Shown here: positions 31,839 through 43,823 of the stretch, piece by piece
How the letters are laid out: the number at the start of each line of letters is the position of its first letter
Position numbering within the stretch: position 1 is the first letter of the stretch
NCBI GenBank assembly: GCA_032718865.1
Contig: JALUTQ010000001.1
Location: forward strand, 372,001 to 436,000
Length of the DNA: 64,000 nucleotides
Direction of reading: 5' to 3'
From: Tilletia caries
Lineage: Eukaryota > Basidiomycota > Exobasidiomycetes > Tilletiales > Tilletiaceae
Program-made: the position numbers and the translations under genes
The notes under the pieces: model-generated
The model's input: only the letters and a program-made list of their open reading frames with translations
Told to the model about the DNA's origin: nothing
The model's database searches: none

Positions 31839-32375
31839 GCCTGGACACTGTTGGCGAAGCTGAAAGTGCAGGAGAACGCGATTACGGCTGTGGTGGTAGG
31901 AAGGATGGAGGGACGATAGACAAGAAGACGAGGAGAGGTCGAGATGTTCGCAAACGGGAAGTTGGGGCAAGGCAGAAGCCGACCGTATATGGGAAAGGAA
32001 GGAAGGAAAGCAGTCACAATAACGATGGATCTTCCTTCGGAAAATTCGAAATTCACCTGACTGCTGACTGGGCGTTTGTCGCAAAGGGTTGAATGCCTGT
32101 GGTGGACGAAAGGAAGATCCAACTCGCCGTCACGGAGACCGGAGTCACTTGGTGAATGAAATCTTTGGTCCGCCTTCTGAGCTTCTGAGTCTGTGAAATA
32201 TAGATGTTCCGCTCCGAGATTCCCGCGCTGGATCAGCCTCTGCTTCGGCTCATGGTGCCATCCTAACGTTGGCCTCGCTCGACAGTCGGTATGTACCATG
32301 GAGACGATCGTCCTCTGCTGCCTCGAGAGTCGAGTCTCGACGTCCCAGAACTCAGGCCGGGGAAACGGAGCATGC
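31839..32375. other. Promoter region of membrane-protein gene 2
   Basis: 5' flank of the gene starting at 31838, ending at the CATGC target duplication (32371-32375) of the gypsy element. No other feature. Confidence 0.45.
32371..32375. repeat. Target-site duplication, left of gypsy
   Basis: CATGC directly before the LTR that starts TGTGGTTGACC. The identical CATGC follows the other LTR at 43819-43823. Confidence 0.92.
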
Positions 32376-33762
32376 TGTGGTTGACCGAAAGGCCGATGGG
32401 GTCTCGCTTAGTGCGGGTCTGTGCGGTTCGCTCGGGCCGGAAGAGGTGGGCTCGACCAGTCGGAGAAGGGCCAAGCAGGAGGGATAAGACTTGCGAGGCG
32501 ATTGAAGAGGGTGAGGGTCGTATGAGGAGTAGGTGAATGAAGGGTAGAGTTGAGAGGGATCTTTGTAGAGTCAGGAGTCAGGCAATTCAAACGAGAGAGA
32601 GATTCTGGGAGAACAAGGTGTGGATTTCTTCTGCGAGTGAGGAAAGAGACAGGGCTTTTTATAGCTAGAGAAGGACAGGATTGGTAGCTATGGAGCGTGT
32701 GTGCGTGTGGGTGACGGAGCAGGATGGAGGGTGGCCTCGGTGCGATCGAACAGGGGAGGATGGTGGTCTTGGGCGATTGAACAGAGGAGGATGATGGCCT
32801 TGGGCGATCGAGCAGAGGAGGATGATGGGGGGGGGTGGTTGAGCAGGATGGAGGGTGGCCTCAATGCGGTCGAACAGGGGAGGATGATGGTCTTGGGCGA
32901 TCGAGCAGAGGAGATTGACGGTCTTGGGGATCGAGCTGGAGAGGATGTGTTGACGGTCTTGGAGTGTCGGGCAGGAGAGAATGTGTTGACGGTCTTTTGG
33001 GGCCTCGAGCAAGAGAAGGATGTGTTGACGGTCTTTGGGACCTTGAGCAAGAGAAGGGTGTGTTGACTTGTCTTGGAGTTTCGAGCAAGAGAAGGATGTG
33101 TTGTCGGTCTTGGACGTTGCTCAAGACCTTCGCCTCTTGGGGAGTGACGAGGTTGAGGACCGCGTCTTCATGGTGGGAGAGGGCCGCGGCTTGGTGGGAG
33201 ACGCCGTCTTGGGTGCCGGGGGTGTGGACTGCTTCTCGATGGGGAGTGCTGACTTGGATGCCGGGGGTGTGGACTGCTTCTCGATGGGGAGTGCTGACTC
33301 GGGTGCTGGGAGTGTGTTTGGGTTCGGTGTGGACTGCTTCTCAATGCGGAAGGTCTCGTCGATCTTGGCTCGTTGCTGTGCAAGCGGAGGCTCGTCAGGG
33401 CTCGGGGACGGGGTTGGCGAGCGGGAGAGGGTGAGTGTGACGACGAGTGTGGGTGTTGGCCTTCGGCCGTCGGACGCTGCATCCGGAGAGCCTTGCTGAG
33501 CCACTGCGAAGGCTGGTCGGTGTCCGCATGTGGTATAGCTGTAGCGGGGTGGAAAGAAGGGTCATGTTGGAAGGAGAGGATGGGAGATGATGGAGCTGCG
33601 TGAGGGAACGGAGATGAGGAGCAGGCTTGGGTGAATGCATGAAGCCGGGTTCAGGAATAATGAGATGTTCTTTGATCGGGATGGGTAGCGTGGCTGGCCG
33701 TTTATCCGGGAGAGATGAGACTGGAGTGACCTAGCCGCGAGGGGGTCTGAGCGGCTACCACA
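32376..33762 (-). repeat. Gypsy 3' LTR (left copy)
   Basis: 1387 bp, TG...CA. It contains a TATA-like CTATAAAAAG on the minus strand (about 32657-32666), minisatellite arrays at about 32754-33116, and two copies of a 45-base unit around 33225-33300 (GGGGGTGTGGACTGCTTCTC core). Open frames inside it are repeat-derived and not treated as genes. Confidence 0.93.
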
Positions 33763-36700
33763 ACTCCCCCCCAACTAAAGAGGTCGAGCCGTGGTCGACC
33801 AGGGACGGGTAGAGGTCGGGGTCGAGGTCGAGGGCAGGTCGGCAGCATGGCGGCGTGCAAAAGTAGCAGTCGTTTGGGTGGCCAACGTTTTCGGTTGTCG
33901 GAACGCTTTTTGGAACGTTCGTTTGTGCGTTGGAGTCAATCGAGCGTTCAGTTTCTTCGCCTTTGTAGCAGCTGGGGTGATCAGGAAGCTCTCGGAGCGT
34001 GCCCGGGTTCGGGTCATCGAACGTGGCAGTTGCCCTAGGCCCGGGCAAGTCGTTAATCATCGCTTGAGGTACATGGATGAGAGTAGGCTGGGGTCCAAGC
34101 GTTGTGTTGAACGTTCCGTCGACTGCGTCGTCCAGGAAAAAACGTTCCTCGTTGATCACACGAGGCCTTGGAAAGTATTCGCGCAGGCGATCGGAGCCGT
34201 AGTTTCGTTCGAGTGGGGTACCATCGAGCTCTTGAAGTTCGTACGAGCCGGAATGGGTCTGTCGGATGATCGCGTAAGGTCCCTTCCAGCGATCCTCAGC
34301 CTTGGCCATGAAGGTGGAGGTTGACTTGATCAGTACCATCGTGCCGGGAGCAAGAGGTTCTCGACGTTTGTGGTCCTGTCGTCGGTCCATATAATCCCGT
34401 CCTTGCGCCCGTGCTTGGTGTAATAGTGCAGCGGCCGTCCGAAGGTCTTCGTCTCGTCTTCGAAGTTGGCGGGCTCGGGCACCCAGGAGGTCCGCTCGGG
34501 TGTGAATCTGCGCCCAGTCAACGATCTGGAACGAGGTGAGGTCGTGATCGATGGGCAGGAGCGGGCTGTATCCGAAGACAAGTTCGAAAGGTGATCGTCC
34601 GGTCGTTCGTCGGGCGGTGATGCGGTCTGCCAGGAGGATGTGTGGCAGGTAAAGATGGCATCGTTCACGGTCATCGTAGGAAGCCTTAAGCAGCCCTTCG
34701 ACGATTGGGGCGTGTCCTCGCTCCACAATTGCATTCCCTTGAGGATGGTTTGGTGTGATTCGCGCGTGTCGCAGACCCAGGCGTCGCAATAGTGCCTCCG
34801 TTTCTCCCGAGTTCTCTGGGCCGTTGTCGGTTAGGATTTGCCGTACCATGGGACCGTAGCGTGCGAGGATATCGTCCTCGATGAACTTGGCGACGGAGGA
34901 GGCAAGCTTGTTCGGGAGGGCGCGGGCCTCGACCCATCCCGTGAGAAGGTCTCGTGCGATAACAAGGTATCGACGTAGTCCCGTACCAGTTCCGGTGTCT
35001 ACGATGTCGAGGGCAAAGTCTTCGAAGAGACGGGGAATTGGCGTGCTTCGTTGGGCCTCTACCTCGCTCTCTCGGCTTCTTCGTTGGCAGGTAGCGCAGG
35101 ACCGAGCGTGTTTGGCGCAGTCGCCTCGGATGGATTCCCACCAGAAACGTTCGAGTAACAGCGCCGTCATCGCATCTCGTCCGCGGTGGCCTAGCTCCTC
35201 GTGTGCATAGGCCATGACCTTGACCTTGTCGTCTGGATTGTCGATCACGAGCTGTGGGCTCCTTTCTGGGTTCCTGCGATACAGTCGTCCTTGTTCCATG
35301 AAGAAACCGCTGAGCTGCCCGCGGATTCTCTTTCGTTCCTGTCGAGACAGTTTGGAAAGGTTGGGATGGGTCCCTCCGGTGGAGAGCCATAGTGCGAGTC
35401 CTCCGAAGCGTTGGACGTACTTGTCCTTCGCGAACTTGTAATCGGGGACGTCATTGTTCGTGTCGATCGATTGCGTGAGAACGGTGTGTTCGATTGACCG
35501 TACATGTCCGTCCTCCGGCCACGCTTCCGCTTCCTCTGCGTTGTTGAAGTTTGTTCGTGAAAGGCCGTCGGGAATAACGTGATGTTTGCCGGGGATGTGT
35601 CGTATCGTAAAGTCGTATTCCTTGAGGTTGGCGATCCACCGAATCATGGTGGCGTTGCCAACGTCGGGCTTGTTGATCATCTGCCGGAGAGACATGGCGT
35701 CGACCTCAAGGATGAAGCGTGTGCAGATCAGATGGTACCGTAGCTTCCGGATGGCCTTGTATACTCCGCACAATTCGAGCTTGGGTTGACTGTATCTTGC
35801 TTCTGTTTCTGTCATCGCAATGGAGTCGTAGAGGATGACAACCCGTCCGCGAGGTGGTGGGTGTTCCTGGAGGAGTGTGTAGCCGACCGCGATTTGGGAA
35901 GAGTCGACAGACACGACTATCGGAGATTCCGATCCGTAATCAATGATTCCAAGATAGTGGTGGGCGGCGGCTGCTTCTTTGACCCTGTTCACAGCCTCGG
36001 ATGCGTCGGGGTTCCAGCGAAACGTTCGTCCGACCAACTTCCGCAGGGGTTCGTCTATCACGGCCATGTTTTTGATGAAGGGGCGAAGGAAATTCGCGAT
36101 GCCGAGGAAACCTCGGAGTGATGATTGGGAGGGGCAGGGGTTGGGCCTTTCTTGGAGCCTGTCGATCTTGTCCAGGCCGGCGCTCTTGCCCTCGAAACCG
36201 ACTCGAATTCCGGTGATGTCGAGTTCATCGGTGATCACGACCAGCTTTGATCCGGAGACGACCAGGTGAGCATGCTCTATCCGGTACAGGAATCGTTCGA
36301 ATGTGACGGCGTATTCGAACACCCATCGTCGGATAGTTGAGTTGGGAAGGGTTTGGTCGTCGTACCTTGTCTTTGGCCCCTTGATTCCAAAGTCGTCGAT
36401 GAAGGGAACAATGTGGTCGGGAACGTCCTCTCCTCCTACGTGGTCGCTGACGCACTGTGCCATCGCCGGAGAGTTTGTTCCTCCCTGTGGTAATCCGGTC
36501 TTCTGAAGTAGGCCGAGGGGAGTTCTGAAGGCTGTGAGTAGTCGAGAGCCGGGGTCCAAGGGTAGCTGGTCGAAGAAAGAGAGCAGATCACCCAACCCGT
36601 AGCATACTCTGACCACGAAGCCGTCGACGTAATCGGGTAGGTAGGGTGGAATGTTGGCGTCCCGGACGGTGTATTGGTTGGCCGTCCGCATGTCAATGAT

Positions 36701-37636
36701 CATTCTGAGATCTCCATTCTTCTTCTTGACGAAGAATTGTGAAGTGACATAGGGGCTCGTGGATGGCTCTAGGTCGCCGTCTCGAAGTTGTTCTTTGAGG
36801 AGTCGGATTGCTGCTTCTCGATCTGATCTTGGATATGGGGGGGATGGGTCCGTCCATGGTTCGTGTTTCGAGAGGTTGATGACGAAAGGGTCAGTGTAGG
36901 CCGGGTTAAGGGATCGTTTGTCCTTTTTGTCGAAGGCAATTGCCTTTTGACAGAGCGTGATCACATGGAGTAGGAGATTACGTTCTTCGTCGTTGATGAA
37001 TTCTAGGGGGCCAAAACTGAGGCTGTTAATTCGTTCCATGGTCAGCTTTTCTGCGGGTCGGAAGGGAGGGACATTAGCAGTCAATGGTGTGTTGTATGGA
37101 TCGCGATCGTATTGAATCGTTCGCAAAGTTTGGTGAACGAAGTTCGAGGACGGCACAGCAGTGGGTCGGACCTTATCCTCCACGGATTTTCGCTTCGTAT
37201 TAATGTGGTGAGTCATCGGAGTCGTGGTCCATGCTCCAGAGCTAACGAGCCTGTGCTGATTGACCTGTAACTGAAGGTGGTTAGCTTCAGCTTTCGTTCG
37301 TAAATGCCCCGCTCCCTCAAGTGTATCGGTGTGGGCAGGGTCGTCGGGGTCGACCACCTGCAACTCCACGATCTTGTTGTCATCGGTCGTCATCGTAGCA
37401 TTTCCTGACACACAGTCAATGCTGTTTCGAAGGGCGTTGAGGGCTGGCATTCCAAGCAAGATATCGTATCCACATTTCTCTTGAACGATGAAGTGTACTG
37501 TTGCCATGACTGAACCGATTCGAATGGGGCAATGTTCGACCAGTCCGTCGAGGACGCTCTTGTTCTGCCCGGCACCGACTACGACATGTCGTCCATCGTA
37601 ACGGAGTGGGAATCGGTGCTCCTGTTGTATTCGGCT
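33755..37636 (-). CDS. pol: Gypsy Pol: protease C-part, RT, RNase H, integrase
   Basis: Continues in the same frame after the TGA at 37639-37637; the first ATG is at 37507 (1250 residues from there). The remainder of the retropepsin includes YDILLGMPALNALRNSID. RT spans about 240-420 (numbered from that Met): FFVKKKNGDLRMIIDMR, GLPQGGTNSPAMAQ and the catalytic VPFIDDFG (FIDD rather than YxDD, about 369-372). RNase H follows at about 530-650 (VSVDSSQIAVGYTL, KLELCGVYKAIRKLR, HHVIPDGLSR). Integrase has its HHCC zinc site at about 769-807 (HEELGHRGRDA, CATCQRRS) and a DDE core with Asp near 834 (ALDIVDT), Asp 894 (TDNGPEN) and Glu 929 (GNAIVERGH), a normal D-35-E spacing. The ORF runs through the polypurine tract and stops inside the LTR (GGELW, then stop). 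Confidence 0.93.
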   Translation of the reverse strand, partial: SRIQQEHRFPLRYDGRHVVVGAGQNKSVLDGLVEHCPIRIGSVMATVHFIVQEKCGYDILLGMPALNALRNSIDCVSGNATMTTDDNKIVELQVVDPDDPAHTDTLEGAGHLRTKAEANHLQLQVNQHRLVSSGAWTTTPMTHHINTKRKSVEDKVRPTAVPSSNFVHQTLRTIQYDRDPYNTPLTANVPPFRPAEKLTMERINSLSFGPLEFINDEERNLLLHVITLCQKAIAFDKKDKRSLNPAYTDPFVINLSKHEPWTDPSPPYPRSDREAAIRLLKEQLRDGDLEPSTSPYVTSQFFVKKKNGDLRMIIDMRTANQYTVRDANIPPYLPDYVDGFVVRVCYGLGDLLSFFDQLPLDPGSRLLTAFRTPLGLLQKTGLPQGGTNSPAMAQCVSDHVGGEDVPDHIVPFIDDFGIKGPKTRYDDQTLPNSTIRRWVFEYAVTFERFLYRIEHAHLVVSGSKLVVITDELDITGIRVGFEGKSAGLDKIDRLQERPNPCPSQSSLRGFLGIANFLRPFIKNMAVIDEPLRKLVGRTFRWNPDASEAVNRVKEAAAAHHYLGIIDYGSESPIVVSVDSSQIAVGYTLLQEHPPPRGRVVILYDSIAMTETEARYSQPKLELCGVYKAIRKLRYHLICTRFILEVDAMSLRQMINKPDVGNATMIRWIANLKEYDFTIRHIPGKHHVIPDGLSRTNFNNAEEAEAWPEDGHVRSIEHTVLTQSIDTNNDVPDYKFAKDKYVQRFGGLALWLSTGGTHPNLSKLSRQERKRIRGQLSGFFMEQGRLYRRNPERSPQLVIDNPDDKVKVMAYAHEELGHRGRDAMTALLLERFWWESIRGDCAKHARSCATCQRRSRESEVEAQRSTPIPRLFEDFALDIVDTGTGTGLRRYLVIARDLLTGWVEARALPNKLASSVAKFIEDDILARYGPMVRQILTDNGPENSGETEALLRRLGLRHARITPNHPQGNAIVERGHAPIVEGLLKASYDDRERCHLYLPHILLADRITARRTTGRSPFELVFGYSPLLPIDHDLTSFQIVDWAQIHTRADLLGARARQLRRRDEDLRTAAALLHQARAQGRDYMDRRQDHKRREPLAPGTMVLIKSTSTFMAKAEDRWKGPYAIIRQTHSGSYELQELDGTPLERNYGSDRLREYFPRPRVINEERFFLDDAVDGTFNTTLGPQPTLIHVPQAMINDLPGPRATATFDDPNPGTLRELPDHPSCYKGEETERSIDSNAQTNVPKSVPTTENVGHPNDCYFCTPPCCRPALDLDPDLYPSLVDHGSTSLVGGELW
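33763..33775 (-). other. Gypsy polypurine tract
   Basis: On the minus strand TTGGGGGGGAGT lies directly before the 3' LTR start TGTGG. It is the expected plus-strand primer position. It doubles as coding sequence for the last Pol residues (Gly-Gly-Glu-Leu). Confidence 0.8.
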
Positions 37637-37639
37637 TCA
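37637..37639 (-). other. In-frame TGA splitting gypsy protease
   Basis: Codons on both sides are in one frame: ...LLDSGSQINVM, TGA, SRIQQEHRFPLRYDGRH... The aspartic-protease active site DSG lies nine codons upstream and the hydrophobic flap/ILLG part downstream. So a full protease and Pol need readthrough of this TGA, or it is a point mutation. Local coding-strand context is ATG TGA AGC. Confidence 0.85.
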
Positions 37640-39012
37640 CATCACATTGATCTGGGAACCGGAGTCGAGTAGGGCTCGGTATCCTCGGTTGCCGATGTAG
37701 ACTGTTCCCATCGGTAGTCCACGGGTGTACCAAGATGGTCCATCTTCTTCCCCGTGGATGGTGGCGTGGTTGATTTGGTGCACGAGGTGTTCTGTCACTT
37801 CTTCCTGGTTGTTGGGGGGGATCGCGTTCATTAACTGGCTGTATATGTGAGCTGCGACCGTCTGCGGGTGGGTGTCTTCGCTTGTGTCCCAAGGCACCGG
37901 CCGTACAGTGACGGGCCAAGGTAGCATCTCTCCGCGTAACTGGGCGAGAATGGCCTTCTGTACGTCAGGGGATAGACCGACGATCGTCTGCCAGGGGAGC
38001 GTCACTGGAGCGTTCATCAGACTCTGGGCCACATCTTGAGGTTGGGAGAGCCGAGTAACCTTGCTTCGTCTTGCTCGTTTCCACAGATTCGGGAGCTTCG
38101 GTGTCTTCGGGTCTTGCATCATGTCCTCCTGGTCCTCGTCCTCCATCTCATCCTGGACTCTCGGGGATTGTCCAGGCAAGTCGGGAGGGTCTGACAGGCT
38201 TGAGCTTGGCGAGACCTGAGGCGTTGTTGGTTTGGATGCAGCCGGCGTGGGAGGCAGATCGAATCGAACCTGTGGTCCCTGCCCTTGTCCTCCGGCGGCA
38301 TGGCTCCTTGTGAGGCGAGGCCGAACGTTTCGATCGTCGATATCTTTGTCGGGCGATCGTTTTTCTGCTGCCTCCACGTTGATCGAATGGGTATGGCACC
38401 CTCGGTCTTCGGTATCATCTGGGGGGAACACAAACGTGAGATAGTTGGCCTGCATTGCATCCACCTTGCTGGCAGGAGTCGGAGGGGGTCCCTGTTGACG
38501 CAATCGTTCCATTACCGGGTCTTGAAGATGGCCGGTTGGAGCTGAAATCCGGGTTCCGTCATTCCAGCAGACCGAGTTGTTGACCAGTCGCACGATTCCT
38601 TGTTGAATGTGAGAGAAGAGTATCGGGCATCGGTCTCGAGCATGCTGTGGGTCGTTGCAGTATACACAGGATGGCGGTCGTTGGATGGGTTGGGCATTGG
38701 GTCCTGTGGCCGGATAGCTGGTGTTATTGTTGTTGGTCGGGCCGTTCCAGGTAGGCATCGGTGCGCTTCCGACGTTTCCCTGAGGTGAAAGCGTCGTGTT
38801 GTACCCGGCATATGGCTGGGTTCTGACTGGTCCTGGAAAGGGGGGTGGGACAGTGTTCGGGTTGCCTGCGAGTCCTTGGGGAGGCATTGCGTGGTGAAGA
38901 ACCGTAGGGCCAAGTCGCTCCATGGCCTGGGCAAAGTTGAGGCTGATTTTCTCAAGTTGACGCACCACTTCGTTGGAGCTGAGTTCTTGGAAGTTGTTCC
39001 CTGCTGAGACAA
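37637..39012 (-). CDS. gag-pro: Gypsy nucleocapsid and protease N-part
   Basis: Frame -1 relative to the capsid frame. An ATG at 38968 (MVRQLEKISLNFAQ) exists, but the frame is open back to the shift site near 39019 (LVSAGNNFQELSSNE), which suggests entry by frameshift. A retroviral-type zinc knuckle is present: CVYCNDPQHARDRC (C-x2-C-x4-H-x4-C). A long Pro/Ser/acidic linker follows (PQVSPSSSLSDPPDLPGQSP and on). Then comes the retropepsin start MGTVYIGNRGYRALLDSGSQ with catalytic Asp-Ser-Gly, right before the TGA. Having the zinc knuckle out of frame with the capsid is unusual for a gypsy element. Confidence 0.85.
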
Positions 39013-41409
39013 GTTTAAGGCCGGCCCGTGTGTTGGAGCTCGGTGATCGATCTGAGCTCGTTCTCGTTGCATCTCGAGCGTCGCCTTCTTGAAGAACGTC
39101 TCGGGTTGGAGACAGCGTTGAACCTCTTCTAGGACTTGTTGGAAAGTTGCGTCCTCGTCCCTCAGAGATGAGTTCTGGAGCGTGCTGAGCAGCTCAATCG
39201 GCAGTCCTCGGACAAAGTATTGCAACAGCTGCTTCGCCCCAATTTGTCCTCGTTGGACGAGCTTGTCTCCGATGTCCTTGAAGGCCAAGCTGTAATGGTT
39301 GAGTTCTGTGAGCGTTCCGATGGTTCGGTTTCGGAGGACGAAGGCGCTGAGATCGTGCTCAGTGTACTTGTCCATCTCGGGCCCTTCGAATCCCGTCATT
39401 ATGAAGTGCCGTACTGCCGTCCAGTTCCCCGCTATGTACGAGGAGTGAGCCTCGATGAGGCTGAAGATGTCGGGATCCTTGTCTTCGACGTAGAAGGATA
39501 GGTATTTCAAACGTTCCTCGTCCGAAATGTCCAGAGCCTCGAACTTTCGCAGAAAGGCTTTTGCGTTTCGTCCCTCGAATTTCCCGACTGCGTCGATCGT
39601 TCCTTTCGTCGGAACCATTCCGTACCTTCGCCCTGCGGGCGCAGGCAACGTTTCTTGGGGGCTTGCACTCAAGGGCGGTCGTGACGCGCTGGAGAGGATG
39701 GTTGGACTCATGGCTCGCTGGTTAACCGGAACTTGATCTTGTTCGCCTCGGGTTTCGCTGTACCGATCGAACTCGTTCTCGTCAACCGACGTTCCTCCTC
39801 CAGTTTGCTCGGACAGGACATCGATCTCGTCCATGTTGTCGAGATCGTTTTGATAGATTGTCATTCGTTCCAAGATTCGCTGTCCGTCGATGATGTACCT
39901 GAATGTTTCTCCATACGCCTGATTCAGGTGGTTGGCGATGAGAGAGAAGGAGGCCGTGGTCTTGATAGTAGCGGTCCAGGTTCCGATCTTTTCACCCTCC
40001 AGCCTCAGTTTTACGTATCCAGGCGGAGGCGGCGGAAGGGTGGTGAGAGCTCCTTTCTGAATGAGCCTAAGCGCATTGGGGTCCGAGCTCGTTCGTTTGG
40101 GGGTATCTTCCTCGAGGTAGTGCTGGTACGAGATTGCGTCGAGAGTGTCTCCGTCTTGAAGATGTGGGCTGGGGTAATTCGGGTTGATTTCCTTTTCGTT
40201 CTTTAGATACCGAAACGTTCGACCATAGGTGTATTCCAGATAGTTCGTTACGGTGGACAGAGGGCTTCTGGGGGACAGGATGAGCGTCCAGAATCCGGTT
40301 GCCGGTCCTCGCAGTTGGAGTCGAACAGAGTTGCTTTGGGCAGGGACTTGTCCAATGTTTCCTCGAATGATTCCGTGCCCAGCCCCGATGTAAACGTCCC
40401 CAAAAATGCAACGTTGGTTTCCGCTGTCGAGAGAGATGCTTTGGTGGACCGGGGAAACTGATTTGTTAGTCTGGTTGGGTTGTGTCATTCTCGTGCTAGG
40501 TTGGATGATCCAGGATGGTTCGATGCCCATTGCGACCGAGATTTCGTACGTCTGCCCTCTTCGAAGGCCGTGTCCGCTCAAGGGAACGTTCCTGAGTAAC
40601 CGTAGCCCATGGTATGCGTACAGGGGCATTCCCGCTTGGTCGAGGTGAAGCCGGAGCCAGGTGAGTAAGTCATCCCCGTTGACTTCCGATCCTACGCACA
40701 TGGAGAACGTTCGCCGTTCCCATTCGACGTCGACTTGAAGGTATATTGGCTCACGGTCCCCATCAACTCCTGGGCCAAGGAAGAGTTCGTGGGTGGTCAA
40801 TCGTGCGTCAGGTCGTTCGATCAGCTGGCTTCGGCGGAAATGGAGCAAGATCGTTCCGGTGTTGAGGGTTGAGAGTGGAAGGTCGTCGTCTGGTTCGCCT
40901 TCGTAATGTTGGAGGTACGTTCCTTCGAGAGCGAGTTCGAAGGCTCGTTTGACGTTGCCGAGAGTCAGCTGGTTTCGGGATCGTAGATGTACGGCGGTGG
41001 TTGGGATTCCGGGCCAGAGGTCGGTCAGCAAGACTTGTAGGCGTACTTCGTCATTTCTCGTGGCAGGTCCATCGTAGTGAGTATACTCTTCTCCTTCCGA
41101 TCCGACGGGGCTTAGTTGGAGTAGAAGGCGAATCCACTCGGGCTTTTGGAAAGGGATAACTCGGGCTGGGTTCATGACTACGGTCAAAACGTCCCCATTC
41201 ATCAGAGGTAGTTGTCGGATCTGTTCGTAGGTGCTGACGGGGACTGTTCGTATCGTGAGAAAGAAGTCAGCTTCGTTGGTTCGGGTAGCCTTGGCGTAAC
41301 TTGCGGCCATCGAGCCCAAGGTCTCGTCTTCGGTTTTGATCCAACTTCGTTCGTATCCCAAGTCATCTTTCAAGGAGAGGTGGATGCTATCGTTTTTCAT
41401 GGTCATCAT
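38512..41409 (-). CDS. gag: Gypsy Gag: five ubiquitin-like domains plus capsid
   Basis: Open frame of 965 codons; the meaningful part ends near residue 797, where the frame changes. Residues 7-538 form five successive beta-grasp-like segments (about 7-80, 121-193, 221-294, 361-431, 464-538), described separately. A linker with Ser/Pro (541-600) follows, then a typical gypsy capsid region, about 605-790. Capsid features are GKFEGRNAKAFLRKFEALD, LKYLSFYVEDKD, NWTAVRHFIMTGFEGPEMDK, LTELNHYSLAFKDIGDKLV and LLQYFVRGLPIELLSTLQ. After the shift point the frame is a shadow. The start is ATG 41409 (MMTMKND); a second ATG three bases on is equivalent. A Gag of this length with a large N-terminal extension is far from the usual 300-500 residues. 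Confidence 0.88.
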   Translation of the reverse strand: MMTMKNDSIHLSLKDDLGYERSWIKTEDETLGSMAASYAKATRTNEADFFLTIRTVPVSTYEQIRQLPLMNGDVLTVVMNPARVIPFQKPEWIRLLLQLSPVGSEGEEYTHYDGPATRNDEVRLQVLLTDLWPGIPTTAVHLRSRNQLTLGNVKRAFELALEGTYLQHYEGEPDDDLPLSTLNTGTILLHFRRSQLIERPDARLTTHELFLGPGVDGDREPIYLQVDVEWERRTFSMCVGSEVNGDDLLTWLRLHLDQAGMPLYAYHGLRLLRNVPLSGHGLRRGQTYEISVAMGIEPSWIIQPSTRMTQPNQTNKSVSPVHQSISLDSGNQRCIFGDVYIGAGHGIIRGNIGQVPAQSNSVRLQLRGPATGFWTLILSPRSPLSTVTNYLEYTYGRTFRYLKNEKEINPNYPSPHLQDGDTLDAISYQHYLEEDTPKRTSSDPNALRLIQKGALTTLPPPPPGYVKLRLEGEKIGTWTATIKTTASFSLIANHLNQAYGETFRYIIDGQRILERMTIYQNDLDNMDEIDVLSEQTGGGTSVDENEFDRYSETRGEQDQVPVNQRAMSPTILSSASRPPLSASPQETLPAPAGRRYGMVPTKGTIDAVGKFEGRNAKAFLRKFEALDISDEERLKYLSFYVEDKDPDIFSLIEAHSSYIAGNWTAVRHFIMTGFEGPEMDKYTEHDLSAFVLRNRTIGTLTELNHYSLAFKDIGDKLVQRGQIGAKQLLQYFVRGLPIELLSTLQNSSLRDEDATFQQVLEEVQRCLQPETFFKKATLEMQRERAQIDHRAPTHGPALNLSQQGTTSKNSAPTKWCVNLRKSASTLPRPWSDLALRFFTTQCLPKDSQATRTLSHPPFQDQSEPSHMPGTTRRFHLRETSEAHRCLPGTARPTTITPAIRPQDPMPNPSNDRHPVYTATTHSMLETDARYSSLTFNKESCDWSTTRSAGMTEPGFQLQPAIFKTR
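39013..39019 (-). other. Candidate -1 frameshift site CTTAAAC
   Basis: On the coding strand the capsid frame reads GCC TTA AAC TTG. Slipping back one base on C_TTA_AAC gives CTT GTC TCA GCA, exactly the frame that continues into the zinc knuckle. The heptamer resembles the T_TTA_AAC class but with C first, so P-site pairing after slippage would be imperfect. No downstream pseudoknot was modelled. A one-base deletion elsewhere in the overlap (39019 to about 38970) is the alternative. Confidence 0.45.
39796..41391 (-). other. Tandem ubiquitin/SUMO-like domain array in Gag
   Basis: Five segments share the order VxLxL-strand, polar strand, helix, FRY/Y-strand, and an L-x-x-G-D-x-L/I end: about 41391-41170 (IHLSLKDDLG ... 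LMNGDVLTVVM), 41049-40831 (VRLQVLLTD ... LNTGTILLHF), 40749-40528 (IYLQVDVEW ... LRRGQTYEISVAMG), 40329-40117 (VRLQLRGPATGFWTLIL, FRYLKNEKEIN, LQDGDTLDAIS) and 40020-39796. The fifth is the clearest: VKLRLEGEKIGTWTATIK, TFRYIIDGQRI and NMDEIDVLSEQTGG. This follows the SUMO/Rad60-SLD pattern R-F-x-F-DG-x-R-I ... M-x-D-x-D-x-I-D-V ... EQTGG. The diglycine is at residues 537-538. Domain 5 is called with fair confidence, domain 4 by similarity to it; 1-3 are weaker and rest on pattern only. Confidence 0.72.
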
Positions 41410-41731
41410 TCTGCTATGTTTTCGTATGTTTTTTCAAATTGGTTTTGATTTCGTTCGTAGAGGTTGATCGTATAATACTCGGGGAATTCGGGTTCGTTCG
41501 TTCTCGTTCGGTGTTCCTGGCTCGTCTTTCTGGGTCCTAGGGTCGGTTTGTCTTTCGGTCGTTGATGGTTGGGGCCTTCTTGCTGCTTGGGTCCGCGAGG
41601 TCAGGTCGTTCTGTTTTGTGTGCTTTTGATGTTTTCTTGAGGAGATCGGCTGGTTCGGAGGCTCGTAATCGTATCCTGGTCTTTTGATTCGAATCGTATC
41701 GGGTGGGGACGGCCTATTTAGTCGACGAGGT

Positions 41732-42400
41732 CTAGATTCCGGATCGCGTTCTGTAACTGCTGGGCGTCGGTCTGTCGGGAAGGGCGCTTGGTTGGTTCTT
41801 GAGAGCGGTCCCGATTGCGTCGGTTTTCCGAGGGTCGGTATACGTCCGAGGGTCGGTAGTAGGGTTGGGTTGTTCGGTAGTCGCGGGATCGAGTACTGGC
41901 GGTGTCTTGGGGTCTTCGTCGAGGCTCGGGGGGGAGGGGGATCGGTTTGACCGGCGGTACTGACACCTTTCGGTCGTTCTGGCTGCTCGAGGGGTTGGCG
42001 TGTATCGCTCGTTCCGTAGTCGAAGCTGGTGGGCCTCAAGGCTCTCCAATCTTGATTCGAGGTCGGAGTTGAATCGATCGAGGCGTGGAGCGTGCTTCTC
42101 GATTCCTTGTAGCGCTCGTTGAAGTCGCTCGGCGGTCTCGCGGAGGTGATCGAGGTCGATGTCCTTGAGTAGCTCCTTTAGGGGCGCTACGATGTCTTGG
42201 AGTTCGTTGGAAGGGGCCTTTTCGGAGGTCGTGGTAGCGTCAACGTCGGTGTCCGATTGCTCTAGCTGGTCTTGGTCCTCGTATTCTCCGTAGTCAGAAT
42301 GAGGTGAGGAGGGGGTTGGCTGGTTGTCTTCGGGGATCCAGTAGTCGGGATCTTCCTCGATGGATCGAGTTGGTGTGTCGAGGTTGTTTGCGCTGGTCAT
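41732..42400 (-). CDS. Extra ORF of gypsy element (acidic, coiled coil)
   Basis: ORF of 222 residues between the 5' LTR and gag. The N-terminal 60 residues are acidic and Ser/Thr-rich (EEDPDYWIPEDNQ). About 68-130 is a likely amphipathic coiled coil (LKELLKDIDLDHLRETAERL, then LESRLESLEAHQLRLRNE). The C-terminal part is basic and Pro-rich (YRRSNRSPSPPSLDEDP). The next frame stays open from about 42039 to 41434 with Arg/Pro/Thr-rich composition in the same frame as gag, so a frameshift could extend it. No family recognised. Its position resembles an N-terminal Gag piece or an accessory protein; the role is unknown. Confidence 0.65.
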   Translation of the reverse strand: MTSANNLDTPTRSIEEDPDYWIPEDNQPTPSSPHSDYGEYEDQDQLEQSDTDVDATTTSEKAPSNELQDIVAPLKELLKDIDLDHLRETAERLQRALQGIEKHAPRLDRFNSDLESRLESLEAHQLRLRNERYTPTPRAARTTERCQYRRSNRSPSPPSLDEDPKTPPVLDPATTEQPNPTTDPRTYTDPRKTDAIGTALKNQPSALPDRPTPSSYRTRSGI

Positions 42401-42460
42401 GAACCTTTTGAACGTTTTTGCTGGAGTGGAACGTTACGTGGGTCGTCCTACTTGGCACAA

Positions 42461-42478
42461 CTCATGCAGTCTCCACCA
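42461..42478 (-). other. Gypsy primer-binding site (putative)
   Basis: On the minus strand, three bases after the 5' LTR end, stands TGGTGGAGACTGCATGAG. TGG is the complement of a tRNA CCA end, so this 18-mer is the expected primer-binding site. I cannot name the tRNA. Confidence 0.6.
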
Positions 42479-42481
42479 ATA

Positions 42482-43818
42482 TGTGGTTGACCGAAAGGCC
42501 GATGGGGTCTCGCTTAGTGCGGGTCTGTGCGGTTCGCTCGGGCCGGAAGAGGTGGGCTCGACCAGTCGGAGAAGGGCCAAGCAGGAGGGATAAGACTTGC
42601 GAGGCGATTGAAGAGGGTGAGGGTCGTATGAGGAGTAGGTGAATGAAGGGTAGAGTTGAGAGGGATCTTTGTAGAGTCAGGAGTCAGGCAATTCAAACGA
42701 GAGAGAGATTCTGGGAGAACAAGGTGTGGATTTCTTCTGCGAGTGAGGAAAGAGACAGGGCTTTTATAGCTAGAGAAGGACAGGATTGGTAGCTATGGAG
42801 CGTGTGTGCGTGTGGGTGACGGAGCAGGATGGAGGGTGGCCTCGGTGCGATCGAACAGGGGAGGATGGTGGTCTTGGGCGATTGAACAGAGGAGGATGAT
42901 GGCCTTGGGCGATCGAGCAGAGGAGGATGATGGGGGTGGTTGAGCAGGATGGAGGGTGGCCTCAATGCGGTCGAACAGGGGAGGATGATGGTCTTGGGCG
43001 ATCGAGCAGAGGAGATTGACGGTCTTGGGGATCGAGCTGGAGAGGATGTGTTGACGGTCTTGGAGTGTCGGGCAGGAGAGAATGTGTTGACGGTCTTTTG
43101 GGGCCTCGAGCAAGAGAAGGATGTGTTGACGGTCTTTGGGACCTTGAGCAAGAGAAGGGTGTGTTGACTTGTCTTGGAGTTTCGAGCAAGAGAAGGATGT
43201 GTTGTCGGTCTTGGACGTTGCTCAAGACCTTCGCCTCTTGGGGAGTGACGAGGTTGAGGACCGCGTCTTCATGGTGGGAGAGGGCCGCGGCTTGGTGGGA
43301 GACGCCGTCTTGGGTGCCGGGGGTGTGGACTGCTTCTCGATGAGGAGTGCTGACTCGGGTGCTGGGAGTGTGTTTGGGTTCGGTGTGGACTGCTTCTCAA
43401 TGCGGAAGGTCTCGTCGATCTTGGCTCGTTGCTGTGCAAGCGGAGGCTCGTCAGGGCTCGGGGACGGGGTTGGCGAGCGGGAGAGGGTGAGTGTGACGAC
43501 GAGTGTGGGTGTTGGCCTTCGGCCGTCGGACGCTGCATCCGGAGAGCCTTGCTGAGCCACTGCGAAGGCTGGTCGGTGTCCGCATGTGGTATAGCTGTAG
43601 CGGGGTGGAAAGAAGGGTCATGTTGGAAGGAGAGGATGGGAGATGATGGAGCTGCGTGAGGGAACGGAGATGAGGAGCAGGCTTGGGTGAATGCATGAAG
43701 CCGGGTTCAGGAATAATGAGATGTTCTTTGATCGGGATGGGTAGCGTGGCTGGCCGTTTATCCGGGAGAGATGAGACTGGAGTGACCTAGCCGCGAGGGG
43801 GTCTGAGCGGCTACCACA
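42482..43818 (-). repeat. Gypsy 5' LTR (right copy)
   Basis: 1337 bp, TG...CA, nearly identical to the left LTR. It has one copy of the 45-base unit where the left LTR has two, and G5 where the left has G9 (near 42930). A TATA-like CTATAAAAG on the minus strand is at about 42760-42770. Tandem units of about 39 bases (GATGTGTTGACGGTCTT core) fill about 43040-43217. Confidence 0.93.
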
Positions 43819-43823
43819 CATGC
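43819..43823. repeat. Target-site duplication, right of gypsy
   Basis: CATGC directly after the LTR end CTACCACA, matching 32371-32375. Confidence 0.92.

What the first reader, a model, noticed from the sequence alone, without database searches (positions are those of the whole stretch)
39796..41391. Retrotransposon Gag fused to five tandem ubiquitin/SUMO-like domains
The N-terminal 540 residues of the gypsy Gag read as five successive beta-grasp-like segments placed before a normal capsid. The last has the SUMO hallmarks FRYIIDGQRI, then MDEIDVLSEQTGG. I know of no described LTR element carrying a poly-SUMO-like Gag leader. Possible roles, all inference: recruiting host factors with SUMO-interaction motifs, mimicking or titrating SUMO to blunt silencing, steering assembly, or targeting integration.
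Basis: partly seen in the sequence, partly recalled or inferred. Interest (0 to 1): 0.95.

Follow-up and report, generated by a model that had tools for sequence, protein, structure and literature searches.

The report
SUMO-like repeats leading retrotransposon Gag
A mobile element in a smut fungus makes its particle-forming protein with a chain of SUMO-like domains stuck on the front, ending in the tail at which cells normally cut SUMO, which suggests that the element borrows the cell's SUMO machinery.

Summary
Confirmed in the main. The window holds a Ty3/gypsy-type element (32376-43818, minus strand; two LTRs, 5-bp target duplication CATGC). Its Gag begins with a ~540-residue leader. Segments 4 and 5 are SUMO homologues: a profile of them plus relatives finds single solved SUMOs from E 1.8e-8, and HHalign gives 95.8% to SUMO and 0.2% to ubiquitin. 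Segment 2 is moderately supported, segment 1 weakly, segment 3 not at all. AlphaFold models of the leader were too poor to show the fold.

Related Gags, by my segmentation with 2, 4 or 6 such segments, occur in T. horrida, T. laevis and T. indica. In 9 of 9 Gags scanned (not all independent) the last domain ends in GGG before the linker to the capsid, like SUMO's ..QTGG tail. Leader dN/dS between two copies is 0.07. 0 of 3 Gags of other gypsy elements in the genome match a SUMO model.

Best mechanism (inferred): a detachable SUMO-type leader cut by host SUMO proteases. Rival: an uncut SUMO-like adaptor. The nearest printed case found is one SUMO-like motif in planarian Burro elements.

The parts
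32376..43818 (-). Ty3/gypsy-type LTR retrotransposon, minus strand, flanked by the 5-bp target duplication CATGC (32371-32375 and 43819-43823); Gag frame broken in this copy
   Evidence: LTR edges TGTGG...CCACA and flanks checked; repeats
42482..43818 (-). 5' LTR (element orientation), 1337 bp
   Evidence: 98.9% identical to the other LTR over 896 bp; the rest aligns less well (85.5% with gaps) through a tandem-repeat array
32376..33762 (-). 3' LTR (element orientation), 1387 bp, preceded in element orientation by a purine-rich tract
41735..42400 (-). Upstream ORF1, 222 aa here and 226 aa in copies L002 and L003; weak coiled-coil-type Pfam matches; relation to Gag unknown
   Evidence: between L002 and L003 13 synonymous and 8 non-synonymous changes
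38512..41409 (-). Gag ORF, 965 aa; leaves the frame of copies L002 and L003 before the zinc knuckle (this copy is frame-broken there)
   Evidence: one search compared
41158..41391 (-). Leader segment 1 (aa 7-84): possible SUMO-like domain, weak
   Evidence: profile with relatives: SUMO 1.9%, 0/30 shuffles; 58.6% to segments 4-5; homologous to T. indica Gag segment 1 (z 9.2); no PDB match of note
40822..41052 (-). Leader segment 2 (aa 120-196): probable SUMO-like domain; no GG tail here, but present in its T. indica homologue (..LEQIGGG)
   Evidence: profile with relatives: SUMO 46%, z 7.0, 0/30 shuffles; homologous to T. indica Gag segment 2 (z 8.2)
40519..40755 (-). Leader segment 3 (aa 219-297): nature unresolved; no sequence support for a SUMO-like fold
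   Evidence: no signal
40108..40332 (-). Leader segment 4 (aa 360-434): SUMO-like domain, tandem duplicate of segment 5
39793..40020 (-). Leader segment 5 (aa 464-539): SUMO-like domain ending SEQTGGG
39793..39801 (-). GGG tail (aa 537-539), position equivalent to the processed diglycine of SUMO
   Evidence: conserved in 9 of 9 Gags scanned, not all independent
39106..39597 (-). Capsid region (aa 605-768)
   Evidence: VIA-align: PNMA2 6.7 over 605-768; C-terminal part PEG10 9.9, Copia 9.9, Ty1 8.1-8.5
38627..38668 (-). Zinc knuckle CVYCNDPQHARDRC, in another frame in this copy
37640..37675 (-). Start of aspartic protease (ALLDSGSQINVM)
   Evidence: the like region of relatives is matched by PF13650/PF13975
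33755..37507 (-). Pol ORF: RT, RNase H, integrase
   Evidence: Pfam RVT_1, RT_RNaseH, Integrase_H2C2; rve at 29.1 bits, below its cut-off of 32.6

Best explanation
This is the Gag of a Ty3/gypsy-type LTR retrotransposon of the fungal genus Tilletia. It carries an N-terminal leader of tandem SUMO-homologous domains, and the element lineage has duplicated, lost and reshuffled these segments (2, 4, 5 or 6 per Gag by my segmentation). Shown here: the homology of the last domains to SUMO, the conservation across species, the purifying selection, and the retained GGG end of the last domain. Inferred: the leader is a detachable SUMO-type fusion. A host SUMO protease (Ulp1/Ulp2 family) recognises the folded last domain and cuts after GG, freeing the capsid-nucleocapsid part for assembly and releasing a poly-SUMO-like protein. 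In elements where an inner domain also ends in GGG (C23-type and T. indica Gags) the leader would itself fall into SUMO-like pieces, as a polyubiquitin precursor does. Keeping the bulky leader until the cut would keep Gag soluble and delay assembly until Gag meets the protease, which in yeast is tethered at the nuclear pore. I put about 0.9 on the identity (SUMO-homologous leader, conserved) and about 0.4 on the cleavage mechanism.
For: Identity. Profile of segments 4 and 5 (two copies of 5) plus five a-type relatives against PDB sequences: tandem SUMO2 4bkg E 4.6e-18; the single SUMOs among the 60 listed (of 178 matched) run from 1.8e-8 to 2.2e-6. The a-type domains without any window sequence: 4bkg 1.4e-4, NIP45 SUMO-like domain 0.0052. 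Profile of GGG-ending last and inner domains: 4bkg 9e-16, single SUMOs from 1.8e-7. HHalign to SUMO 91-96% for these groups and at most 10.4% to ubiquitin/NEDD8. A diverged Gag in the same genome (capsid 26% identical) also gives Rad60-SLD at E 8.8e-4, below cut-off. Relatives: T. controversa (partial), T. laevis, T. indica (two kinds), T. horrida.

Selection. Copies L002 against L003: 32 of 143 leader changes non-synonymous against 70% expected, dN/dS 0.07; each of the five segments is separately below expectation.

GG tail. 13 of the 14 GGG runs in the 9 proteins scanned sit at the end of a SUMO-like segment, and 9 of 9 proteins have one just before the linker. The tails (SEQTGGGP, LEQIGGGT, LEQVGGGT) resemble the host SUMO tail VEQVGG-ARTSRTA-stop that I read in L066.

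Host machinery. A SUMO gene (43% identical to yeast Smt3 over 49 aa, E 1.9e-7) and 13 matches to the Ulp1-type peptidase family PF02902, two of them in one frame.

Yeast context. Ulp1 tethering at the nuclear pore affects Ty1 (PMC8585004, passages).
Confidence: 0.45

Rival explanations
1. Uncut adaptor. The leader stays on Gag and the SUMO-like domains dock Gag to SUMO-pathway proteins (Ubc9, SIM proteins), as the SUMO-like domains of Rad60/Esc2/NIP45 are known to do (recalled), to steer particles or the pre-integration complex to a nuclear site.
For: The a-type domains lack a GG tail; without window sequences their second-best PDB match is the NIP45 SUMO-like domain (E 0.0052). Only one domain of the window leader ends in GG. 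Pfam names the match Rad60-SLD.
Against: As far as I recall, Rad60-type domains carry no GG tail, whereas the last domain here keeps GGG in 9 of 9 Gags scanned. Most SIM-groove residues of Smt3 are changed in segment 5 (alignment; roles of the residues recalled).
Confidence: 0.3
2. Decoy. The leader mimics or soaks up host SUMO enzymes and so blunts SUMO-dependent silencing of the element.
For: Multiple SUMO-like domains; in yeast, Ulp1 tethering influences Ty1 expression (PMC8585004, passages).
Against: Only part of the segments keep SUMO hallmarks; SIM-groove residues poorly kept in segment 5; Gag would need to be abundant relative to host SUMO; no direct evidence.
Confidence: 0.1
3. Purely structural leader: SUMO-derived domains now serve as a matrix-like or spacer region in particle assembly, without contact with the SUMO pathway.
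For: Purifying selection on all segments (L002 against L003) fits a structural role as well; the number of segments varies from 2 to 6, as a spacer might.
Against: Does not explain why the GGG end is kept while the last domains diverge to about 30% identity.
Confidence: 0.12
4. The SUMO resemblance is a chance or low-complexity match and the leader is an unrelated Gag region.
For: Single-sequence scores are weak; no confident fold; segment 3 matches nothing.
Against: Diverged families give the same hit; 0 of 40 shuffles reach the score; ubiquitin comparison negative for segments 4-5.
Confidence: 0.03

Closest known systems
SUMO / Smt3
   Same: Profile homology of segments 4-5 and of the relatives' a- and b-type domains; the tail ..EQTGG/..EQIGG; residues follow GG as in SUMO precursors
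   Different: Tandem, fused to a retroelement Gag, diverged (segment 5: 24% identity over 75 aligned columns of the HHalign alignment to SUMO), with most SIM-groove residues changed
Rad60/Esc2/NIP45 SUMO-like domains (Pfam Rad60-SLD PF11976)
   Same: Name of the (mostly sub-threshold) Pfam match; a-type domains' second PDB hit; tandem SUMO-like domains in one protein (recalled)
   Different: GG tail kept here (absent in that family as recalled); fused to capsid and protease
Burro giant gypsy elements of planarians (PMC6431247)
   Same: A gypsy LTR element with a 'Ubi2/SUMO-like (PF11976)' motif in its polyprotein
Ulp1/OTU proteases in Ginger and Mutator transposons (PMC2836005)
   Same: Mobile elements drawing on SUMO/ubiquitin biology
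   Different: These encode the protease, not the SUMO-like substrate (passages read)
Polyubiquitin precursors and SUMO fusion tags
   Same: Beta-grasp modules followed by a diglycine where a peptidase cuts (recalled)
   Different: Domains here are not identical repeats, many lack GG, and cutting is untested
Ddi1 (Ubl plus retroviral-type protease)
   Same: Ubiquitin-like domain and retroviral-type protease in one protein (recalled); may account for the Rad60-SLD mention in a fungal host-TE fusion screen (PMC10799480, passage; my inference)
   Different: A cellular gene without capsid or RT; a Ddi1-like frame was seen in this genome (L071, named by recall)

Membership tests
Ty3/gypsy LTR retrotransposon | Two LTRs with target-site duplication | tested here: met
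   LTRs 32376-33762 and 42482-43818, duplication CATGC
Ty3/gypsy LTR retrotransposon | Gag (capsid, zinc knuckle), protease, then RT-RNase H-integrase in that order | tested here: met
   RVT_1, RT_RNaseH, H2C2; rve below its cut-off; capsid fold; CCHC and DSG motif
Ty3/gypsy LTR retrotransposon | RT placed in the gypsy clade by a tree | not tested
   No tree was built; the assignment rests on domain order and Pfam families
SUMO | Sequence homology to SUMO rather than to ubiquitin | tested here: met
   For segments 4-5 and the relatives' a/b domains. Segment 2 moderate, segment 1 weak, segment 3 not met
SUMO | Beta-grasp fold | tested here: inconclusive
SUMO | C-terminal diglycine exposed by a SUMO protease | tested here: inconclusive
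   GG present in the last domain of 9 of 9 Gags scanned; cutting not testable here
SUMO | Conjugation to lysines through E1/E2 | not testable with these tools
   needs biochemistry
SUMO | SIM-binding groove residues | tested here: inconclusive
   Segment 5 keeps the I-K pair of the Smt3 FKIK strand but not the other basic groove positions in the HHalign alignment; residue roles recalled
Rad60-SLD (PF11976) | Score above Pfam's gathering cut-off (23.8 bits) | tested here: inconclusive
   Whole-protein scans all below it: window 16.6, L003 20.6, L020 19.5, P0001 20.8, P0002 19.5, P0005 15.2, P0006 17.6; P0003 and P0004 no match at E <= 1. Six-frame genome search: L003 24.9 above, window 21.5 below, L002 and C23 not listed
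Polyubiquitin-like precursor | Each repeat ends in GG | tested here: not met
   Only segment 5 of the window leader; 2 of 4 segments in C23-type and 2 of 6 in T. indica P0005/P0006

The most novel reading that the evidence does not exclude
A lineage of Ty3/gypsy elements has captured host SUMO, multiplied it into a poly-SUMO-like Gag leader and placed capsid release under control of the host's SUMO proteases. It would be a retroelement whose maturation is shared between its own aspartic protease and a host deSUMOylase, and whose released leader may enter the host SUMO system.
Probability: 0.3. Interest if true: 0.92.

Novelty: new variant of a known kind. Interest (0 to 1): 0.8.

Why it matters
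Gag leaders normally hold matrix-like or disordered regions (recalled). A conserved poly-SUMO-like leader would be a direct physical link between a retroelement's structural protein and the SUMO pathway, which is known to affect Ty1 in yeast. It makes a clear, cheap question testable: do host SUMO proteases cut retroelement Gag? It also shows how a host modifier can be captured, duplicated and reshuffled inside a mobile element.

Tried and rejected

Ubiquitin origin: disfavoured for segments 4-5 and the b-type domains (HHalign at most 0.5% to ubiquitin/NEDD8). a-type domains showed some ubiquitin signal (10.4%), and the T. indica segment 2 is nearer to ubiquitin than to Smt3 in pairwise scores (z 3.8 against 2.5).

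Segment 1 with its C39 relative found one PDB chain, unrelated, at E 1.1. The C39 copy of segment 2 alone found nine chains, best E 0.064; all but one (a pyrophosphatase) are ubiquitin-like proteins, partly by recall, and none is SUMO. Segment 3 matched nothing.

IMG/VR viral contigs: 62 pattern matches, no relative. First protein search with the L003 Gag found one cluster only; these searches see only relatives sharing exact words. NCBIfam: 0 of 3 Gags matched.

Literature: 10 answered searches of a CC-licensed PMC library found no poly-SUMO Gag leader; most subscription papers and preprints are not in it. Rad60-SLD in a fungal host-TE fusion screen (PMC10799480, passages) was considered as prior art; it may reflect Ddi1-like genes (inference; supplements not read). 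PMC9172201 and PMC6194002 (passages) discuss gypsy abundance in Tilletia; the words SUMO and gag occur in neither.

Profiles built from a handful of related rows can inflate E-values. I therefore repeated the search without window sequences (E 1.4e-4) and used shuffled-profile controls. As a scale, the ubiquitin/NEDD8 profile itself scores 91% to SUMO in the same set-up. The single-sequence signals are each weak, and the top PDB name is 'Sonic hedgehog protein' (E 0.001), presumably through a SUMO tag. Segments 1, 3 and 4 of the six-segment T. indica Gags score only 1.9-4.2% to SUMO themselves.
Full report

Host. The protein hits that are 100% identical to its Gags over 88% of L003's Gag (P0001) and over the queried region of L020's (P0002) are labelled Tilletia controversa and T. 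laevis. So it is one of the bunt fungi of wheat or a close relative (inference).

Are the segments SUMO-like? With single sequences the evidence is thin: Pfam Rad60-SLD E 0.0071, below its cut-off, and tandem SUMO2 chain 4bkg E 1.8e-4, SUMO1 about 0.01. Profiles make it firm. A profile of segments 4 and 5 and five a-type relatives (A6, 8 rows) finds 4bkg at E 4.6e-18 and single SUMOs from 1.8e-8 (60 of 178 matches listed). Without any window sequence the a-type domains still find SUMO (4bkg 1.4e-4), then the NIP45 SUMO-like domain (0.0052). The GGG-ending domains (A11, 7 rows) find 4bkg at 9e-16 and single SUMOs from 1.8e-7; 59 of the 60 chains listed (155 matched) are named as SUMO or SUMO fusions, the other (9oik) being presumably tagged. 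HHalign against a three-sequence SUMO profile gives 95.8% (segments 4-5), 91.2% (a), 94.5% (b). Against ubiquitin/NEDD8 it gives 0.2, 10.4 and 0.4%. 0 of 40 column-shuffled SUMO profiles reached any of the three SUMO scores.

The first three segments. With the T. indica homologues added, segment 2 reaches 46% to SUMO (z 7.0, 0 of 30 shuffles). Segment 1 reaches 1.9% to SUMO (0 of 30) and 58.6% to segments 4-5. Segment 3 shows nothing (22 of 30 shuffles as good; tested as a single sequence). So two domains are shown, one probable, one possible and one open. Against this, the C39 copy of segment 2 alone finds weak ubiquitin-like rather than SUMO chains.

Relatives. In the same genome, element C23 (L020; RT 49% identical over query residues 1-398; capsid 26%) has a 1295-aa Gag frame (protease included) with four such segments in two a-b pairs. 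It hits Rad60-SLD (E 8.8e-4, below cut-off) and Smt3 in a chimera (0.059) in its last segment. Protein-database relatives are T. indica P0003 (58%, four segments), T. horrida P0004 (38% over 70% of the query, two segments), and T. indica P0005 and P0006 (36%, six segments). Pfam shows no Rad60-SLD in P0003 or P0004 at E <= 1. Segment counts are mine, by homology between the sequences, and not every segment is proven SUMO-like.

A link between the families. A locus on C39 (L014), the only one of its kind found, carries four segments in two frames and no capsid in the 7 kb read. Its first two match the window's segments 1-2 (z 11.9, 8.0) and its last two match the C23 a and b types (z 9.2, 9.9). 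All four match T. indica P0005 segments 1-4 (z 31.8, 53.8, 9.9, 31.2). This ties the two leader families together: segments 1 and 2 of the window correspond to segments 1 and 2 of P0005 (z 9.2, 8.2), and segment 5 to its segment 6 (z 11.6). Leaders thus come with 2, 4, 5 or 6 segments.

Control. Of four upstream regions fetched for other gypsy-type RT hits, three contain a Gag frame (L054 and L055, of one family; L056), and 0 of 3 match a SUMO or ubiquitin model at E <= 1. The fourth (L053) showed no Gag. The other RT hits among the 56 matches were not examined. The leader is therefore not general to the gypsy elements of this genome.

Selection. Between copies L002 and L003 the leader has dS 0.357 and dN 0.027; 32 of 143 changes are non-synonymous against 70% expected (binomial P 4e-31). 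Each of the five segments taken alone is below expectation (P 0.008 to 3e-9; segment 1 on only 4 changes). The capsid behaves alike (5 of 24). Segment 3, though unidentified, is as constrained (2 of 12). Window against L002 is too recent to say much (leader 6 of 13, capsid 4 of 6 non-synonymous).

The tail. Scanning nine Gags (window, L002, L003, P0001-P0006) for GGG gives 14 runs. 13 end a SUMO-like segment, and in 9 of 9 proteins one stands between the last domain and the linker to the capsid, followed by P in 8 and T in the window. The nine are not independent: window, L002, L003 and P0001 are one family, and P0005/P0006 are close to each other, so about four or five lineages are sampled. 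One inner segment of each of P0002, P0003, P0005 and P0006 also ends in GGG. The host's own SUMO gene reads ..VEQVGG-ARTSRTA-stop (L066; exons read by eye), so Tilletia SUMO should need trimming after GG. The Gag tails (SEQTGGGP, LEQIGGGT, LEQVGGGT, GPQIGGGP) follow the same plan. The host also has 13 matches to the Ulp1-type peptidase family, all above cut-off, two of them in one frame.

How it probably works. The last domains diverge to about 30% identity while GGG stays (A11: identities to the first row 29-34% apart from one 88% pair; G80, G81 and G82 invariant). Cellular SUMO-like domains that are not processed have, as I recall, lost the GG. The simplest reading is that the GG is used: a host SUMO protease cuts between leader and capsid. 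Shown: domains, conservation, selection, tail. Inferred: cutting, its timing, any fate of the freed leader. The chief rival is an uncut adaptor of the Rad60/NIP45 kind. The SIM-recruitment version of that is weakened, since of the FKIK strand and following basic groove positions of Smt3 only I-K is kept in segment 5 (alignment, roles recalled).

What is known. In the searched library, one gypsy group with a SUMO-like motif is described, the planarian Burro elements (PMC6431247, passages). Ulp1 and OTU proteases in other transposons are described in PMC2836005 (passages). The effect of nuclear-pore Ulp1 on Ty1 is in PMC8585004 (passages). The rest were seen as listings only, save PMC10799480, PMC9172201 and PMC6194002 (passages). 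I found no account of a tandem SUMO-like Gag leader.

Verdict. A real, conserved and, in what I could search, undescribed variant of a gypsy Gag. Identity about 0.9, cleavage mechanism about 0.4.

Noticed in passing
window 41735-42400 (-); L002:542-1222; L003:3437-4117: A separate ORF of 222-226 aa with weak coiled-coil-type matches sits between the 5' LTR and Gag in the window and copies L002 and L003; 13 synonymous and 8 non-synonymous changes between L002 and L003 suggest constraint. Whether it is spliced to Gag is unknown.
   Followed up: partly
L002 against L003, Gag: Synonymous divergence is uneven along Gag (0.08 in segment 1, 0.60-0.66 in segments 4-5, 0.16 in the capsid), as if copies were mosaics of two lineages.
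   Followed up: no
L014 (G000:C39:1075800-1082800): Relic of a leader of the T. indica six-segment type, cut short next to a repeat rich in GCGGAATTCCGC-like stretches; no capsid found in the 7 kb read. It could be a decayed element or a former co-opted leader.
   Followed up: partly
L068, L069 (G000:C21:69300-79400, in part): Diverged ubiquitin-like frames, broken by stops, apparently decayed polyubiquitin-like sequence.
   Followed up: no
G000, 13 matches: 13 matches to the Ulp1-type peptidase family PF02902 (two in one frame), more than the two SUMO proteases I recall for yeast; some may be transposon-borne.
   Followed up: no
window 42811-43212: A tandem-repeat array inside the LTR (units of about 30-40 and 99 bp) probably accounts for the length difference between the two LTRs, 1337 and 1387 bp.
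   Followed up: no
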